Shown: piece by piece, positions 38,381-47,572 of the stretch
Numbering within the stretch: position 1 is the first letter of the stretch
How the letters are laid out: each line of letters opens with the position of its first letter
Assembly: GCF_000711695.1 (NCBI RefSeq)
Contig: NW_013547012.1
Coordinates: 62,001-126,000 of the forward strand
Reading direction: 5' to 3'
DNA: 64,000 nucleotides
Source of the DNA: Tilletiaria anomala UBC 951
Lineage: Eukaryota > Basidiomycota > Exobasidiomycetes > Georgefischeriales > Tilletiariaceae
Made by a program: the position numbers and the translations under genes
Notes under the pieces: generated by a model
What the model was told of the DNA's origin: nothing
What the model saw: the letters and a program-made list of their open reading frames with translations, nothing else
Database searches by the model: none

Positions 38381-40755
38381 AGCTGGAAAGGCGATCGTCA
38401 GCTCCGGGACAATGGCGAAGCGCTCGGCATGTTATCACTCGAGAAGCTGGTCAAGCCTCGGAAAAGAGCTTTTATGCTTTTCGACTCGGTGCGCCGTCAC
38501 CATCGGCAATGCAAGGATCCCCTCCCCCCTCGGGACATTCAGCATTTGGTTCCCATGCATCACTTTGCGTCTTCGGCGCATCAAGCACAGCCGGCCTATG
38601 ATTCGCGTCTGACGCAGGCGGCAACAGCGACTTCATACCCAGGGCGGGTGCAGAGGGCAGTTCTCGCTGCCCTGTCACCCCCACCCCTACTGGTCAATCC
38701 TTGAACTCGCCAATGATGCCATGCCTTCGCATGATGGCCTGGGTGCTGTGCACAAGAGTCAGCGCAAGCCAGATAACATCCTGAGTAAAGGAGAGATATG
38801 TGATTCTATCGGTGCTTGCTTGCCCCTGCTCTTTTGGCTTCTCGCCTCATCAATTTTAAGTTCATCACGGACGCAGGAGGAATGTACCACGTTCATCGGG
38901 CATGCGGCAGGAGTGCCACTGCATCGGGGTCTATCAGTACCGACCCTTGTGATGACAAGCAGACATAAATAGGAATATGAGACGTTGATTTCATCCGCCA
39001 TCATGTTCATCGCGTTTCTTATGCGGCGCTTCGTGGGGCTGTGTCCTCCTACATCAAGCACAATACAATGATGAATGGTGCTTGATGACCTCCTTCAAGA
39101 GTCAGATGTCCGATACCAGCACAGGGAAGCCGGTTTTCCAATCTTGCAGCTGCCATCGCCGCCGAGCATTGAGGCGCAAGTATATCGGATTCTGGGTGTA
39201 TCTTTCTGAGCGCGTTCACGAGTACACTAGCCTGAATACATACTGGCACATACTCCCATCAGGAATGCCCTGCGGCGCAGGCAGTCAGCAACGTCTGCGT
39301 CACCAGTCTCCTGCAAAGTCCAAGGTCTAACGTCAAAACCGAAATCATTAAGCCATAAGTAGCCAGCGCGATGCGTTATGCGCATCAGCGACCAGCACGT
39401 TGTTGGCGATTCCTTCAAGTGACGCGTGACGCCGGATCCGTCCGAAAAAGTATCATTTGAGCGGCTGCCTCGACTCCCATGCCACTCATTGCTCAATCAC
39501 TTATTTGTCATTTCGCATGGCTGAGCCGCCGGCCGAACCTCGATGTAGCGTACCTACGCGTCGAATGTTGTGTTGACTGACTAGTCGACCATTTGCCGTA
39601 TGTCAAGTGTGTTGATTAGTCGACAGCACCAGGAAAGCGGTTGTCGAAAGCCTCAGTCGACATTGAGTGCGTTTATGAACCTGATTCGCCGGAACGACAC
39701 CGGTTGCTGTACGTATAAAGAGACCTTGCTCATCAATCAGTCCTGCATTGTGGCTTGCAATCCAGCCACTATCACCACGTGGCAGGAGTGAAGATGCAAA
39801 TTCTGTGAAGCTTCCAGGAATTGAGCCAAAGCATGGAAGGTCGAGGTGTTGAGCTCGTCACTGATGGTGCGTCATTGGGTCAAACAGTAGCAAAGGAGTG
39901 GTGGGTAGACACTGCTCTGTAGCTGACCAACCAAATCTTTTGTTGATGGCATCAACAGCGATACCGCCTCGGGAACACCAATCTGGAATCCCCTTCTGGT
40001 TCGCACACCTGCATCCAAGTGCACGTAGACATCTGACCAGGTAGGTATACATGGTTCCGGGTGGAACCCCTGTTTATGCTTGACCCGGTGTTATTCCATC
40101 CGTATCAGTTTTGTAAATGCCCCCATGCCTTACTCGACCCCAGACTAGCAATGTTGTAGACTGATGTGATAGGGCTGCAGGCGCTGGGAGCGCGACTTGA
40201 CCACTTGTCTTTATGGGTTATTTTCTCAAAGTTGCTCGACAGCAGTCGACCGAAGTCGACAACAGGTCACATATCCCTTCGCTGCGAGGGCAAGAACTGG
40301 ATGATGTAGAAACACACTCATACAATCGGAGCTTCGGAATCCGGGTCAGTCCACGGCATATGTGTCATATTGTCGGCGCTCGCAGTTGACCAATCTACAG
40401 AAGTGCATAAACGCTCTACAAATGTAGGGATAATTGCTAGACTTATACAAGTCTGGGGAGCATGCAGGTGCATATAGCATGGTTGAGCATGGAGGCGCTG
40501 ATGGATGTGCCGCTGGAAACCTTCATTTTTCGGCAGGTCCGAATGCATGATCACGTGATCATCTCCGTCCTTCAGTTCACAACAATACCGCCCTTCCGTC
40601 ACCACGCAATCGCAGCGAACTGGTCCAATCCAATCACCTCTCTCTACCTCCTATTCCATATTTCACTATCCTTCACACACACCCTAACCCCCCCCCAAAT
40701 CTTTGTCATGTGTTCAGGAGCCCAGCGCCCCAGCATACAGTAAAAGACGCTCACC
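38381..40755. other. Intergenic region upstream of the RING gene
   Basis: About 2.4 kb without a supportable gene. Its second half carries five GTCGAC palindromes (see separate entry) and C-rich leader sequence just before the RING-gene ATG. Confidence 0.4.
39584..40260. promoter_or_regulatory. Cluster of five GTCGAC palindromes
   Basis: The hexamer GTCGAC, usually preceded by A, occurs at 39584-39589, 39619-39624, 39656-39661, 40245-40250 and 40255-40260. Random expectation in 677 bases is about 0.2. The position, 0.5-1.2 kb upstream of the RING gene, fits a factor-binding array, but no factor is known to me. Confidence 0.3.
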
Positions 40756-43700
40756 ATGGGACTCTCTCAGTCGAGGGAACGCCTAGAGGACGCGGGAGTC
40801 AGCGCAGCGGAGCACGGCCTGATCAGGGAGGCTGCGGCCAGGCAGCAACACCCTCAACAAACACACCAACAGCAGCAAGAGTTGCCTTCTGAACAAAACT
40901 CGAGCCCAAGGGGGTTTCCCGGATCCTCGCACTTGCAAGTTGAAGGCAGGTCCGAAGCATACGACATGGACGTGGACGCATCGAGCCCAGCTCCCGCCCA
41001 GGGTCGGCGCAGGAGGGAGAGGATGGTCAGCTCAGGCTCCAGTGCTGGCGCCAGCGATCCATCGCCACAGCGCCGGCGTCTATCCCTTTCTCGTCGGCTA
41101 GGCATCACGTCTCGCGGGAACGTGCTACGCAGTGCACAAGAACCAGAGTTGGAAGCGCAGCCGCTAGCAGGAACGAGCGATTCGTCACGCCTAGCAGCGT
41201 CATCGTCTTTGCCAGCACAGCTATCGTCAAGAGAATCCGCTACACACTGTGACCACAGGAGCAACGAGGGTCGTTCAGCGAAAGACAGGTTGCTTGCTCG
41301 GAGCCGCAGGGTGCTCAACTTTGGGGCAGCCAGTCACCAGGTTAGCACTCCTGCTGACTCGGCGGGAGGCAGTTCTGCGACCGGTGCCGACATGCACATG
41401 TCGGATGCCACTGACGAAGTTGCCGCCACGAGCAGCTCACAGGCTCTTGGGGCTAACTCTAGCTCCGGAGGCAGCGCTAGTGGTTCTGGTATGCAGTCAG
41501 CAACAGCTACGCAACGCGCTTCGAGCCCAGACGAGCTAACCGAAGAGCGCAGCAGGGTCATGCATCAGATTGCTAGCGTCCTCGGCGAACCGGCCGTCCA
41601 GCGCAGCTCACGGTACACTGAAGTCCGCTCGCCGACTCTGTCTACTGCAACGCCTAGTCCTCTACCTGGCATCTCCGATGTGCCTGGGCAGCAACCGAGC
41701 TCATTAGCGGCGTCAGACGCCGCATCACGCGGTCGTTGGTTTGAGGCACCACGTGCTTCCCGAGCAGAAGGGCCGCACGAGGAGCCGCCACCGCGCCCAA
41801 GCACCATCCCTGCGCTTATGAACGACCTTCTTGGTCTGCGGCCAGCAGGAGGAACTACGGCAGGTGCTGGACAACCCGGAGCAGAAGCAGGCGATCAAGC
41901 TGGCGCGCCGAGGCCATCCGTGTCGTCGGGAACGTACGTCGTCGTTCAAGGTATGCTAGTCGCAAGAAGCGGTCCGCCTTTGAGCAATACAGCATTGTCC
42001 CCTTCTGTAGCTCAAGGACAAGAATCGACTCGACCTGCAACATCGCAGAGCCACGCCGCTACGTCAGTGTCAGCGCCATCCGACGCACCCACTCATTCAA
42101 CACGCGCAGCTGCATCGAGGAACCCCTACGCGACTTCAACAGCAAGATTGTCCAGTTCTCCCGGCTCTTCCGCGAGTGGCAGCACGATGCGAAGGCGCAG
42201 TCTCTCCGACGCGGGTCCAGCAGCATCGACATCATCGGGACAGTCCGGAACAGGCCGAACTGGTCCAGTTCGCCAGCAGCATGCAGCTAGCGAGCAAGCA
42301 GGAAGCACAAACCCGTCCAACATCGGCACCAGCACAGGCCCGGCTATTGGCGCCAGTGCTGCTGATGCGGCGCCCTTCACGCCGCCATCGACTGCGACCG
42401 AGCAAGCTGCGATGCTGACGCGCATGATCTCCATCGCAGCTGCCGCGACGGCTGTCTCCCTGCTGGATCCGGCGCAAGCACAGCATCAGCAACAGCAACA
42501 GCAGCAGCAACGGCGCTGGAACTCTTCAGCACATGGTGTAGCGGATCCGCTCGGCGACAGGCTGCGTGCTGCTGAGACTGCGCTTGCTGGCGTTACTGCC
42601 CGACCCACAACAGCGCCAGCAACAGCAACCGGGACTGGCACTGGGCCAGGGACTGGTCTCAGGGAAAGGCTTGCGCGTTTGGGCTCCAGGCTAGCTAATT
42701 CTTTCGTGCCAGAGGAGACGAATGCGGCTGCCCAACCTTCTGCTGGAACGAGCATGGCGACAGGGAGCAGTACCCGCGGGGGCACGGGTGCTACAGCAGA
42801 GTCCAATGTGCCTGCAGCTGCTCAAGGCCTAGCTGGTACCGGTGCAGAAACGACTGCTCAGCCGGACTTGCCGTCCATGCTGCGCAATGCTTTGAATGCC
42901 GGACATGATGGCGAGGGTTCGCTCTTCACTCCGCTCTCCACGTCTGCTTCTCCGACGACGAGCAGCGGAACAGCAACGTCTGAGGCACCTGCTTGGACGA
43001 CAGAAACGCTGAACCAGACGCTTGCGAGGGCTCGCTCCGGCGCAGTGACCGATGGCCCAGAGCATACATTCGACCATTTCCTGCACAGCTTGACGCAGGA
43101 CCTTTCCGCTGCCATTGAGAATGCATATGGCACCGCGCCGCAGCTACCACCTTCGAACAGCGTCGCGATGAGACGCACACACGACCTAACACGCGGTAAC
43201 GTTTCTTTCTTCCGAATCTTTCGCTTCGAGCAGCCATCAGAGACTGCTGCTGCGTCCGAGCCCGGCCCACGAGCAACGCAGCCGTCTTCGTCCCCAGAGG
43301 ATGCCCATGCTTCCGCTTCGCAATCTCAACAGAGAAGCTCGTGGTATCCTCGCTTGACTAGCCCATCTGTTAGGCGAGCGCAAGGAGACCAGAGCCCGAG
43401 CACAGCACCCGCTGCAGGATCAGAATCTCTTCTCCCATGCCTGGTTGTCGGCGTGCGGTCAGGCCCGCTGAATGCAGGAGCAACTTTTTTGCCCATGTAC
43501 ATGCCTTCGTCAGCACAAGAGGCGAACATGGGCGATGCAAGAGGCGCCACCGGCCCCGATGTGCCTGCAGCGTCGCAAGCAGATATGCACATTGCCGAAA
43601 GCGGCGATAATGATGCTGCGGGTGCAGCGACACCGTCCGACGCTAATGTTAATGTGGGTTCAGCCGCAGCCGAGGGTGACGCACGAAGTCCGGACGGCAA

Positions 43701-44220
43701 TGCGATCCGCTACAACCTCTTCGTCTCTGCTGGCTACTATCCGAGGGACCACGCTTTGCTCTCATCCCCTTTGCACCTCGCCGCAAGGGATCTGATGTAT
43801 CTGATGGAGCTCCTCGCATCTATGAGTGTCTTTCAACCCAAACGCAACGTGGCAACGGAGAACGACCTGAAGAATAGCGCGCTTCGCATTGTGTCAGGCA
43901 AGGAAATCGTCGAGATGGCTCAGAAGGGGCAAGTCGCTTCTAATACAGCGGAGAAATGCCTTGTGTGCCTTGAAGATTGGCTGGTCAGTCCGTCGCTAAT
44001 AGTTCCTTCAACTATAGGTTTGAGCCTGACATACTTTTGAAACTCATTGCAGTCCGAAGACAAAATCCGCGTGCTCGACTGCAAGCATGCATATCACATG
44101 GACTGCGTCGATCGGTGGCTCTGCAGCTCATCGAACACGTGTCCGTTATGCCGGCGCGAGGCCGTCAAGAGGTCTGAGCCCACGCAGACCGCAACTCATG
44201 CACCAGCATCCGCGATTTGA
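40756..44220 (+). CDS. RING-H2 finger protein, probable membrane-tethered E3 ubiquitin ligase
   Basis: Probable ubiquitin ligase. The model is join(40756..43983,44053..44220), 1131 residues, with a 69-nt intron (donor GTCAGT, branch-like GCTAATA). The RING-H2 domain is split by the intron: [10 protein letters not shown] then [22 protein letters not shown] and NTCPLC, giving all eight zinc ligands. The N-terminus [10 protein letters not shown] matches the N-myristoylation rule (Gly2, Ser6). About 1000 residues between are Ser/Ala/Thr/Gln-rich and mostly disordered-looking, with a short Gln run near residue 580. A more ordered block ([27 protein letters not shown]) precedes the RING, as in other fungal RING proteins of this layout. 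Substrates are unknown. It is convergent with the Dug3-PTPA gene, with 144 bases between. Confidence 0.88.
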
Positions 44221-44364: not shown

Positions 44365-47300
44365 TCAATCGAAAGGAATCCTTCGCACTGCGGGTTGCGA
44401 AGGCTTAGCGCCTTGCGCGTACGCGCTCGCTGCGTTCGAGCCAGACTTTTCCTTCTCAGCGGCAGCAGCAGCGAAGGCACTCGGGATAGGAATTCCACAG
44501 CAATCGCCCCAGCCGGCCGCTTGTCCTTCACCGTGCCCATGCTTTGAGTGGATGTGCCCGTGCTCGTCTTCCTCTGCCTCGCCTTCCTCTGCCTCCTCGC
44601 CGGCTATTGCTTCGGGGAAAGCGAGCAATGAGCCGAAGAAAATGTGCTGTGCAATGGGCAGCTTTAGCAGGACTTCGGCCCGATACATCTTCTGCATGCC
44701 TTCGTTGACCTTGGCCCATGTCTTGACGCCGGAGATGTCGTCGAGCATCGGCGAGTGCCATCTGAGGGAAGCGGTTTTGATCTGTTTAGAGTATTTCGGA
44801 AGTGTAATCGTCAGGAGGTGTGGCAGAGAAGCCAAATTGGATGTCGTGCGTTGACTTACCGAGTTGATGAACTTGATGCAAGCAAAGTACATGTAATCCT
44901 CTGCGAACTCATCCAGGATCTCTGGATCGTGAATCGACTTAGGTTTCAAATGCTTGTGATCTGTAGCGGACAAAACGCCGTTTGGTCAGCCGCGCGGCTC
45001 ACGCAGCGAGCGGGGGAATATGCGGTGGACTCACTTTGCAGCTGTCCAGATCCCCACAAGAACGGCAAGAAGTGATAGTCGTCCAAACCCCAGACGCCAT
45101 GGCTACCAGCAGGCTCGAGCCAATACGTGCTTTGGATCTTTCGCATGACTGTGATGTACTGCCAAAACACACTCATGACCAGCGCTTGCGCATCACGCTC
45201 TACGGTGAGGACCCCTAGCTTGACCAAACATAGCCTAAAGTGGGAAATGGTAGGTAGGAATGTCGGCCAGTCTGTGACGCGTTGTCTCCGTTTCGAAAAG
45301 AAACACTCACAACCAGCAAGCAAAGTTCAGCTCCATCCCGCTGCCGTAATCAATTCTCTTCTCATTTCCCCAGCTCTCCTCAAGGTAGACGCTGATCTCC
45401 TCGACCGCAGCAAGCGGCAAGCCAGGAATGAGCGCATGCAGCGGGCCCATGACGTCCTTGACTTTGTTGTAGAACGTCCGGAACGCCGAATTACCAAAGC
45501 GCGAGCCAGACGACTTGTCTGCGGGAGTCTCATCCAAGAGCGCACTTACTTGCGCCAGTAGCTTCAACAGTGCCCGGATGGGCTCGCTCTGTACAACGTT
45601 TTGATCGTGCAGCTTCTTGCCGATAACGGCGTCGTTGAGCAAGCTGATGAAGCTCAGCAGCTCGTCGAACACTTCGCTTCCTTCAAAGCGCTTCAGTGAC
45701 CGTGGTGAAACGATGCGTTTGCGCGGTCGCGAAAAGATCACGCGCGAGGGATCGACCATGCGCAGCTTCCTGGATGGCTCAAGCAGCGGCAGAGGATGGC
45801 GTTGCGCGTCCGATGATGATGATGACAATTGGCCAGAAGATGCCGGAGGGGAGCTGTCCGTAGGCACCGCAGCTTGCTTCTGCAACGAAGCTTCAAGATT
45901 CGGGACCAAGGAAGCAGAGGCATCTGCGCCACACCCTGCCAAATTGGAGCCAGAAGATTTAGCCTTGGAACGCAGCCTGGAGACGAGCGCGTCAGCCGCT
46001 ACCGCGCTGCTTGCCAAGTCTGTCGCGGCAGCAGCGTGGCTCTTCGTCGGCGACTGCAGCGAGAGGTGCGAGGGCCCTGAGTTGTAACTTCCGGCACTAC
46101 TTCGCATAGGCGGGCTGTGCTCCGGGAACTTGTTCATGCCTGCGCCGGGGCTGGGACTTGGACTTGTGGTCCACGCCTGCTGTTGCTGTTGCTGCGTGCC
46201 GTTAAGCGGGCTGAGCGGCGCCTGCTCTGCTCTCTGCCTCGTCGCAGCGGCGTGACCTACAGGCACATTGATCTGATAACCAGCCTTGATCGCAAACTCC
46301 GTGTTGCGCTTTGTCGCACCGTCCTGGTCCCCTTTGACAGTGGCAAACTCATCCTCGATGGGCTGTTGCAGGACATTCATCCTGGGAGTGATGGCGACAA
46401 GTGTGTTGGTCGGTATCTGGATCCAGTCAGCTTTCTCGAATGTCAGAGGTTCGGAGGCAACGACAATGATCTTCTCGCGCTTGTCGGCCTTGACCATCCT
46501 GTACCGTCCCGGCCCGCGAGGCGGCGGTAGGCCGGGGACGTTCTTGACCTCTGTTGTCGCAGCGGACAAGCCATCAGGATCGCTGCTGGTATCCGCGCTG
46601 CTTTCTTCCTTATCCTCGTAAAAAGAGGTACCGGAAGAAAAGTAGAGGCTTGCAGCTTCCTCAGTCCGACTCGAGACGTAGCGCGTGCAGACGACGCTCT
46701 CACCATCGCTGACGACGAAATTCATCAAGCTTGGCTCCTGTACGCCAGCTTCTTTGGCCCAAGCATTGAAGTCCGCGATAGTGGCCAGCATGGCCTCGCG
46801 CAATTCTCGCCAAGCAAAGGTGCCACATCGCAGTGGATCACGCAGGTGCGAGAGGAAGACGCAGAATGCCAGCTCCGAGTCTGTGTGGCCCTGTGGATAG
46901 AGGAAGAGCTCCTCGGGCAAAGCCGCAAGGAGGCGCCGCTTGACGCGTGAGAAGGACGAGATCTGGCCATTGTGCATCCTGTACCAGCATTATAAGGTGA
47001 TTTCGGGCATTGAGAGATTGGTGAAGCGAACACGCAGACCTATGCGAACGGTGTGCTCACCACATTAAACGCCCGTACCGCCAAGGATGACAATTGGTCT
47101 CGCTTAGTGCACCAGCGGTAGAAGCTCTGACATGCGCAAAGATCAGAGGGCTCTGAATCTTGTCCGCGAGCCGATGTAAATTCGCGTTGTTCCACGCGGG
47201 CGTGACGCTGGTGAAGATGCACGGCGCGTACGGGTGGGTGTTGTAATCGTACTCTCTTGACCCTACCTCTTCTTGCTCAGAAGGTATGTTGCGGGTGGTA

Positions 47301-47572
47301 TTCCCTTTGCTAGCTGAAGTAGCCGAGTCCTCGTGGCGCCCCAGTGAGGAAGACTGCCCGGCGCCAGAGGCAGCAGACGCTGCCACTAGGGCGGACGGCG
47401 CCATGGCCGCGTCATACCAGCCGACACCAAAGCCATCGCCATTGACGGACCGCGTGGCGTCTAGACGTAGCCGCGCATCGAAGGCTTGGTTGATGATGCT
47501 GTGCGCCGGCTTCGTGACGAGATGCGAGATCTGGATCGGCTCGGTTCCTTTAAAGACGAGCAAGCGGCACAT
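44365..47572 (-). CDS. Fusion of Dug3-type glutamine amidotransferase and PP2A activator (PTPA)
   Basis: A single reading frame encodes two normally separate enzymes. The model is complement(join(44365..44781,44860..44960,45035..45234,45311..46978,47061..47572)), 965 residues; all four introns (74-82 nt) are GT-AG and in phase. Residues 1-382 are a class II glutamine amidotransferase like yeast Dug3 (glutathione breakdown complex): Cys2 as N-terminal nucleophile in MCRLLVFKG, then [40 protein letters not shown] and ASEPLTF. Residues about 383-589 are a Ser/Ala/Gln-rich linker. Residues about 590-930 are PTPA, the PP2A-activating prolyl isomerase: [45 protein letters not shown] and HSPMLDDIS. 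An internal ATG at about residue 580 could start PTPA alone. No stop separates the halves. Confidence 0.88.

What the first reader, a model, noticed from the sequence alone, without database searches (positions are those of the whole stretch)
44365..47572. In-frame fusion of a Dug3 glutamine amidotransferase with a PP2A activator
Seen: exon phases and frame run without a stop from the Cys2 amidotransferase ([22 protein letters not shown]) through a 200-residue low-complexity linker into a complete PTPA domain ([23 protein letters not shown]). Known: in yeast Dug3 acts in glutathione degradation, and PTPA/Rrd proteins are separate PP2A phosphatase activators. Inference: one polypeptide may couple glutathione turnover or redox state to PP2A activity, or may simply be a co-expressed fusion cleaved or started twice. 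I know of no description of this architecture.
Basis: partly seen in the sequence, partly recalled or inferred. Interest (0 to 1): 0.82.

Follow-up and report, generated by a model that had tools for sequence, protein, structure and literature searches.

The report
Conserved Dug3–RRD2 fusion gene, annotated split
In the smut relative Tilletiaria anomala and two unnamed relatives, a glutathione-degrading enzyme and a phosphatase activator that are separate genes in other fungi appear to be encoded as one long protein, although the public annotation of Tilletiaria lists them as two genes.

Summary
On the minus strand, five exons (47572-44365) with four GT-AG introns of 74-82 nt give one 965-residue frame: Dug3-type glutamine amidotransferase (1-411), a 174-residue linker, a complete RRD2-type PTPA (589-882) and its tail. 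The genome is Tilletiaria anomala UBC 951; its public models split the locus into a stop-less 'partial' Dug3 and a PTPA starting at Met578. That split is probably wrong: the same pair, in the same order, is joined in two other predicted proteins (P0001, P0002; 2 of 71 hits), the joined sequences form one clade in both domain trees, and the linker carries, upstream of Met578, an N-terminal motif of stand-alone Ustilaginomycotina RRD2 (28 of 32 long-N-terminus rows). No second Dug3 was found; the one other PTPA is not RRD2-like. So it looks like a single-origin, lineage-specific fusion. Transcript proof is missing, the relatives' DNA was not readable, and one weak splice donor or internal starts could still release separate products. 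Coupling of glutathione turnover to PP2A is untested; I favour two ancestral functions on one flexible chain.

The parts
47061..47572 (-). Exon 1: Dug3 N-terminal part, Met1-Cys2 start (MCRLLVFKG), up to GRLMW
   Evidence: homology. The public model P0191 lacks 47 residues here, as if 141 nt (47396-47256) were an extra in-frame intron
46979..47060 (-). Intron 1 (82 nt, GTGAGC...CAG)
   Evidence: the joined protein gives MWMHNG, as in P0001 and P0002
45311..46978 (-). Exon 2: rest of Dug3, whole linker, PTPA N-terminal part, in one uninterrupted frame
46255..46281 (-). Last conserved Dug3 element GYQINVPVG (residues 404-412); public Dug3 model P0191 ends at residue 405 without a stop
45736..46257 (-). 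Linker, residues 412-585, low complexity
45970..45999 (-). [10 protein letters not shown] (498-507): N-terminal motif of stand-alone Ustilaginomycotina RRD2, inside the linker
45757..45759 (-). ATG of Met578, start of the public PTPA model P0072
46255..46260 (-). GTAGGT at the Dug3/linker border, the only GTRNGT or GTRAGN site of the linker region; some pairings would end Dug3 early
45235..45310 (-). Intron 2 (76 nt)
45035..45234 (-). Exon 3: PTPA core, [24 protein letters not shown]
44961..45034 (-). Intron 3 (74 nt)
44860..44960 (-). Exon 4: PTPA
44782..44859 (-). Intron 4 (78 nt)
44365..44781 (-). Exon 5: end of PTPA, acidic/His tail, [14 protein letters not shown] and RRIPFD, stop
   Evidence: similar [12 protein letters not shown]...R[RV][IV]PFD tails in stand-alone P0074, P0075, P0076, P0087, P0088

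Best explanation
This is a real, lineage-specific gene fusion in the Tilletiaria lineage. A rearrangement put an RRD2-type PTPA gene directly behind a Dug3 gene; the Dug3 stop and the PTPA start were lost as boundaries, and the two former tails became a disordered tether. One mRNA most likely makes one 965-residue chain. The Dug3 half keeps its exposed Cys2 because it is N-terminal, pairs with the Dug2-like protein and starts glutathione breakdown, which Dug1 finishes; the PTPA half keeps activating PP2A-type phosphatases. Shown: the frame, the domains, recurrence as predicted proteins, one clade in both trees, no second copy found, presence of Dug1 and a Dug2-like protein. Inferred: how it arose, one transcript, one polypeptide, retention of both activities, two PTPA units per (Dug2-Dug3)2 complex. 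(The odds given here and for the rivals overlap: the coupling reading is a special case of this one, and minor separate products would not exclude it.)
For: Uninterrupted frame, clean introns. PTPA complete, and the Dug3 half aligned over most of its length to fungal Dug3 proteins. Same pair and order in P0001 and P0002, 2 of 71 hits. Domains conserved and linker not: Dug3 114-295 143/181 and 153/181 identical, PTPA 586-793 148/208 with P0001, linker 412-497 26/86 and 13/77. Whole linker 30 identical columns against a maximum of 16 in 60 shuffles. RRD2 N-terminal motif inside the linker (28 of 32 stand-alone rows with a long N-terminus; shuffled mean 0.43). Joined rows are one clade: Dug3 tree 100/99 (3 of 24 rows), PTPA tree 100/97 (2 of 31 rows). 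A Dug3 query finds only this gene (4 of 4 matches); the other PTPA is nearer human PTPA and RRD1 than RRD2. Dug1 and a WD40 + M20 Dug2-like protein are present. (Dug2p-Dug3p)2 complex in yeast: PMC6508711, passages.
Against: Public models split the locus, and the genome paper says 93% of models are transcript-supported over >75% of length (PMC4056295, whole text), so the split could rest on transcripts. P0001 and P0002 are unnamed predictions whose DNA I could not read; a predictor could have merged neighbours or spliced round stops, and merged-looking models occur among the other hits. Both end inside PTPA (817 and 561 aa), and P0001 fills only 44% of the PTPA tree's columns. The linker stretch 412-497 alone is only marginally above chance (10 identical columns, mean 5.2, reached by 2 of 60 shuffles), and the synonymous codon bias of 404-577 is not coding-like. 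A weak donor at 46260 with 8 of 11 tested acceptors would give Dug3 its own stop. The NCBIfam model nearest P0001's amidotransferase is EgtC, below its cut-off (129.3 of 218.65 bits).
Confidence: 0.78

Rival explanations
1. Two separate neighbouring genes, as publicly annotated: Dug3 ends at about residue 411-471 by an unannotated splice, and PTPA has its own promoter in the linker.
For: Public models P0191 and P0072; transcripts back 93% of models; a weak donor GTAGGT at 46260 pairs with 8 of 11 acceptors to end Dug3 at 411-471 aa; Met452 lies 46 residues before the motif with a purine at -3.
Against: P0191 has no stop and P0072 omits the conserved motif at 498, so neither model looks right as it stands. 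P0001 and P0002 read through as predicted. The donor differs from the gene's own four (GTGAGC, GTGAGT, GTGAGT, GTAAGT). Shared residues continue past the donor (G[HF]AA).
Confidence: 0.12
2. One gene, two products: the joined frame exists, but alternative splicing, an internal start (Met452, Met462 or Met578) or cleavage in the linker yields free Dug3 and free PTPA as the working forms.
For: Linker without confident structure in a poor model; a Met before the motif in all three (T. anomala 452 and 462, P0001 464, P0002 381); weak donor.
Against: I did not test whether these Mets exceed chance, nor look for cleavage motifs; nothing here measures products.
Confidence: 0.2
3. The fusion is a regulatory device: Dug2 binding, glutathione or redox state at the Dug3 half changes PTPA activity or places PTPA and PP2A at the DUG complex.
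For: Kept while the sequences diverged to 54-66% identity; no free RRD2-type copy was found, so that PTPA would always be tethered to Dug3. Yeast Rrd1/2 act in the Tap42-Sit4 branch of TORC1 (PMC6506691 passages; PMC8103650 abstract) and DUG serves sulphur and nitrogen supply (PMC12653102 passages), so both sit in nutrient response.
Against: No paper of the library holds RRD2 and DUG3 together as whole words. The linker is long and poorly conserved, which fits a tether more than a signalling interface. The second PTPA may cover essential needs.
Confidence: 0.15
4. Assembly or sequencing error joins two genes or hides a stop.
For: Short-read assembly at 25x; a glutamine repeat (QQQQQQ) lies in the linker.
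Against: The locus lies inside one 260 kb contig, and two other sources show the same join with different linker sequence.
Confidence: 0.02

Closest known systems
Dug3 (class II glutamine amidotransferase of the DUG glutathione degradation pathway)
   Same: Met-Cys start, GDGFG, HVR, HNG and GHTDSE elements (motif roles recalled), 54-64% identity to the named stand-alone Ustilaginomycotina Dug3 rows among P0192-P0206, Dug1 and Dug2-like partners in the genome
   Different: Carries a PTPA at its C-terminus instead of stopping after the GYxxNVP tail
RRD2 / Ypa2 / PTPA (PDB 2ixn)
   Same: Full PTPA domain, best solved match RRD2 (E 2.1e-94), the N-terminal motif and GWGDCC...PFD tail of smut RRD2 proteins
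   Different: Not free at its N-terminus; encoded behind Dug3
Unnamed predicted proteins P0001 (817 aa, 561 kb NCBI contig) and P0002 (561 aa, 4.4 kb contig, sources lgn and ena)
   Same: Same architecture, same order, linker motif AADALVSRL; same clade in the trees (P0002 in the Dug3 tree only)
   Different: Diverged linker; both predictions end inside PTPA; organisms unknown
Other multi-domain Dug3 predictions (Pfam partners, names recalled: Ssu72, DnaJ, GTP cyclohydrolase, kinesin, WD40/M20)
   Same: Dug3 joined to another domain in a gene model
   Different: Partners vary. In P0041 and P0045, which have the partner in front, the MCR start is lost, as in merged models; here it is kept and the pair recurs

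Membership tests
Dug3 | N-terminal Met-Cys with class II amidotransferase domain | tested here: met
   MCRLLVFKG start, GATase_4 over cut-off, 3mdn match E 7.9e-29
Dug3 | Groups with fungal Dug3 proteins | tested here: met
   Best hits are fungal amidotransferases, several named DUG3 or glutamine amidotransferase subunit; tree held only such rows, so it does not test against other families
Dug3 | Partner Dug2 (WD40 + M20) and Dug1 in the same genome | tested here: met
   L013 WD40 + Peptidase_M20; L012 matches DUG1 4g1p E 3.4e-101
Dug3 | Glutathione gamma-glutamyl hydrolysis with Dug2 | not testable with these tools
   needs enzyme assay
EgtC (ergothioneine biosynthesis amidotransferase-fold protein) | NCBIfam TIGR03442 over cut-off | tested here: not met
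   P0001 129.3 bits, cut-off 218.65; the window's own protein was not scanned with NCBIfam
PTPA / RRD2 | Complete PTPA domain | tested here: met
   PF03095 positions 1-293 of 293, 397.7 bits
PTPA / RRD2 | RRD2 rather than RRD1 type | tested here: met
   2ixn 320.5 bits against RRD1 163.2; the C5 paralogue (a frame lacking the domain's first part) shows the reverse, RRD1 147.5, RRD2 120.6
PTPA / RRD2 | Activation of PP2A-type phosphatase | not testable with these tools
   needs assay or complementation
Genuine gene fusion | One frame without stop across both domains, in more than one lineage | tested here: met
   DNA of this window; relatives only as predicted proteins
Genuine gene fusion | Single origin | tested here: met
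   100/99 (3 rows) and 100/97 (2 rows) clades
Genuine gene fusion | Single transcript and single polypeptide | not testable with these tools
   no RNA or protein data reachable

The most novel reading that the evidence does not exclude
The fusion is a working regulatory enzyme: the (Dug2-Dug3)2 glutathione hydrolase carries two built-in PP2A activators, so that sulphur/nitrogen starvation or glutathione load sets PP2A-type phosphatase activity directly, a link I found described for no fungus (listings).
Probability: 0.15. Interest if true: 0.8.

Novelty: new variant of a known kind. Interest (0 to 1): 0.5.

Why it matters
If the product is one chain, the RRD2-type phosphatase activator of these fungi sits on the glutathione-degrading enzyme, a natural experiment that points to a possible link between glutathione use and PP2A/TOR signalling, testable in yeast, where the genes are separate. 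At the least it questions a split public annotation and shows that domain-architecture databases can miss fusions when a gene finder cuts them.

Tried and rejected
GC content as a sign of an intergenic boundary: the 3' intergenic stretch of this gene is 36% GC and the linker 62%, but the 200 nt downstream of 11 long frames in the window range 38-69% per 100 nt, so this says nothing. Some of those frames may end at introns, not true stops.

Codon-usage scoring of the linker: the right frame scores best overall, but the synonymous-only score does not; judged uninformative.

AlphaFold model of P0001 from a 41-row alignment of joined and stand-alone proteins: mean pLDDT 51, pTM 0.47; too poor for a fold search or any claim on domain contacts; most of 446-616 is under pLDDT 50, with one short predicted helix at 523-527, inside the motif.

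RRD2 N-terminal motif: a strict pattern found 10 of 32; one loosened after seeing the sequences found 28 of 32, shuffled mean 0.43, maximum 3 in 500, so that control is optimistic. The recount: of 122 rows, 81 were dropped because my pattern for the domain start did not fit them; 32 of the remaining 41 have 35 or more residues before the domain. Of the 81 dropped, P0003, P0094, P0095, P0096 and P0154 also show the motif near their N-terminus; most of the rest, largely Agaricomycotina by the names listed, do not, and the other matches among them lie further in, at residues 36-84. Several of the 28 are near-identical rows of unnamed source, not independent.

C85 and C106 amidotransferase matches considered as second Dug3 copies: C85 has SIS domains, as glucosamine-6-phosphate synthase does; C106 and C3 hit GATase_6; none of the three matched a Dug3 query. 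These counts hold for the assembly held (18.41 Mb, 202 contigs; 18.7 Mb and 289 published). Rfam on the window: 0 matches at gathering score.

Literature: eight searches. Those aimed at the architecture were 20 of 361 listed, no Dug3 in any listed; 1 paper; 10 of 10 listed; 0 papers; 8 of 58 listed; listings only. Searches were for background. The library holds open-licence PMC papers only.

Full report
What was checked. The window lies in contig C10 (62001-126000, contig 260,435 bases) of an 18.4 Mb, 202-contig assembly. A PTPA protein identical to residues 578-965 of the window's comes from a 260,435-base contig of Tilletiaria anomala UBC 951 (P0072), so the organism is T. anomala, by its paper the first genome published for the order Georgefischeriales (PMC4056295, read whole).

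Gene model. On the minus strand five exons (47572-47061, 46978-45311, 45234-45035, 44960-44860, 44781-44365) joined at GT-AG introns of 82, 76, 74 and 78 nt give 965 codons and a stop. Pfam finds GATase_4 at 131-268 and a complete PTPA at 589-882. Among solved structures the PTPA half is nearest RRD2 (2ixn, 2.1e-94) and the front half matches 3mdn, a class II glutamine aminotransferase-domain protein (7.9e-29). The linker is all within exon 2, so the join does not hang on any splice prediction.

Public annotation. The database holds two models for this locus: P0191, 358 aa, 'N-terminal nucleophile aminohydrolase, partial', and P0072, 388 aa, 'Phosphotyrosyl phosphatase activator'. P0191 ends at residue 405 of the joined frame, where there is no stop codon; P0072 starts at Met578. 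Residues 406-577 are in neither. P0191 also lacks 47 residues of exon 1, which fits removal of 141 nt (47396-47256) as an in-frame intron, in a loop that is variable in the relatives.

Relatives. A search with the whole protein gave 71 hits among 7985 scored candidates (only those sharing most words were scored); 2 of 71, P0001 and P0002, carry both domains. Both start [16 protein letters not shown], run through GYQPNVPVG[FH]AA, a variable stretch, AADALVSRL[KR], a second variable stretch, P[LM]PLLKPS, and KRIVSQ. Identity with T. anomala: Dug3 1-54 53/54 and 52/54; 114-295 143/181 and 153/181; linker 412-497 26/86 and 13/77; motif 498-508 9/11 and 10/11; PTPA 586-793 148/208 (P0001) and 38/66 (P0002, which ends early). 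The whole linker aligns with 30 identical columns against a mean of 10 and a maximum of 16 in 60 shuffles; the half before the motif alone has 10 against a mean of 5.2, reached by 2 of 60. I could not read the DNA behind P0001 or P0002.

What the linker is. I examined 122 PTPA proteins: the 120 listed (P0072-P0190 and P0003) and P0051 and P0057. My pattern for the domain start fitted 41; 81 were dropped. Of the 41, 32 have at least 35 residues before the domain, and 28 of these 32 show the pattern [ADEKNQRT]-x(1,3)-[LIVM]-x2-[KR]-L-[HKQRSW], 25 of the 28 within the first 20 residues (shuffled mean 0.43, maximum 3 in 500; pattern loosened on the same sequences; misses P0051, P0057, P0075, P0086). 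Five of the dropped rows show it near the N-terminus too; most others do not. The named rows among the 28 are smuts such as Testicularia, Ustilago and Sporisorium, Thecaphora, Jaminaea, Sympodiomycopsis, Ceraceosorus and Malassezia. The joined proteins have it at 498 (T. anomala), 520 (P0001) and 431 (P0002). So the linker reads as a Dug3 tail, a short junction, and the old N-terminus of RRD2. That puts the PTPA's ancestral N-terminus upstream of the public start at 578 and leaves about 86 codons (412-497) in which a gene boundary would have to fit.

Origin. The three Dug3 domains form one clade (ultrafast bootstrap 100, SH-aLRT 99; 24 rows), the two usable PTPA domains too (100/97; 31 rows). 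End branches of the joined rows are 0.10-0.52; none was flagged as long, though P0001's (0.46 in the Dug3 tree, median 0.16) is the longest of the three. In the Dug3 tree a long Cryptococcus branch meets the others at the root; P0001 fills 44% of the PTPA columns. Tilletiopsis washingtonensis (Dug3 only seen), Ceraceosorus, Jaminaea, Sympodiomycopsis, Tilletia, Malassezia and true smuts have separate proteins. Where both proteins of a named species were listed, the contig lengths differ for Thecaphora frezii, Testicularia, Jaminaea rosea, Ceraceosorus, Melanopsichium, Malassezia vespertilionis and Pseudozyma flocculosa, which suggests that they are unlinked; in Sympodiomycopsis kandeliae both lie on a 4,498,260-base contig at unknown distance.

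Copy number and partners. A Dug3 query (P0203) finds only this gene (4 of 4 matches). PTPA matches are this gene (3) and one on C5, whose open frame scores 169 bits with human PTPA, 147 with RRD1 and 121 with RRD2. DUG1 is on C16 (4g1p, 3.4e-101) and a WD40 + M20 protein like Dug2 on C61. So, in the assembly held, this gene must supply whatever Dug3 and RRD2 functions the fungus has.

Mechanism. In yeast (Dug2p-Dug3p)2 cleaves glutathione to glutamate and Cys-Gly, and Dug1p is a Cys-Gly dipeptidase (PMC6508711, passages); the pathway lets cells use glutathione as sulphur or nitrogen source (PMC12653102, passages). Rrd1 and Rrd2 are positive regulators of PP2A-type phosphatases and act with Tap42-Sit4 under TOR (PMC6506691, passages; PMC8103650, abstract and outline). 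Class II amidotransferases use the amino-terminal Cys as nucleophile (recalled), so only the order found here, Dug3 first, keeps that residue exposed. I infer one chain with two working halves and a flexible tether; if the yeast stoichiometry holds, each Dug complex carries two PTPA units. Equal expression of both halves is the surest consequence; cross-regulation is possible and untested.

What speaks against. The public split may rest on transcripts (93% of models are transcript-supported). One donor-like site, GTAGGT at 46260, lies at the end of Dug3; of 12 acceptor-like sites listed I joined it to 11, leaving out one that overlaps it: 8 give Dug3 a stop at 411-471 aa and 3 keep the fusion. 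It differs from the gene's four donors (GTGAGC, GTGAGT, GTGAGT, GTAAGT), and shared residues continue past it. Internal ATGs at 452, 462 and 578 could start a free PTPA. Merged models seem common in this family: other hits join Dug3 to varied partners.

Novelty. No paper in the library holds RRD2 with DUG3 as whole words; one holds 'phosphotyrosyl phosphatase activator' with 'glutamine amidotransferase' (PMC4965049, a nematode proteome, listing only); the other searches (listings, partly capped) show nothing on it. Both parts are known families; the joined architecture is the new thing.

Noticed in passing
window 45970-45999; P0073-P0131: A short N-terminal motif (as AKDxLxSKL[RK]) precedes PTPA in most Ustilaginomycotina RRD2 proteins with an extended N-terminus that I counted (28 of 32); function unknown to me.
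   Followed up: partly
window 47256-47396: The public Dug3 model lacks 47 residues of exon 1, as if 141 nt with an unusual GTCCGC donor were an in-frame intron; either form keeps the frame.
   Followed up: partly
P0034, P0058, P0059 (Rhodotorula): Dug3 with a DnaJ domain (PF00226) in three Rhodotorula predictions; P0034 keeps the MCR start. Another possible Dug3 fusion, or merged models.
   Followed up: no
P0067 (Planoprotostelium fungivorum): One predicted protein holds the amidotransferase, then WD40 and M20 domains, that is Dug3 followed by Dug2, though its start is not MCR; perhaps a merged model, perhaps a Dug3-Dug2 fusion.
   Followed up: no
window 40744-44220 (+): Convergent neighbour: long low-complexity frame that, after an apparent intron, ends in a RING-like pattern (CKHAYHMDC...CPLC; by eye, no family search); its stop at 44218-44220 is 144 nt from the fused gene's stop.
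   Followed up: partly
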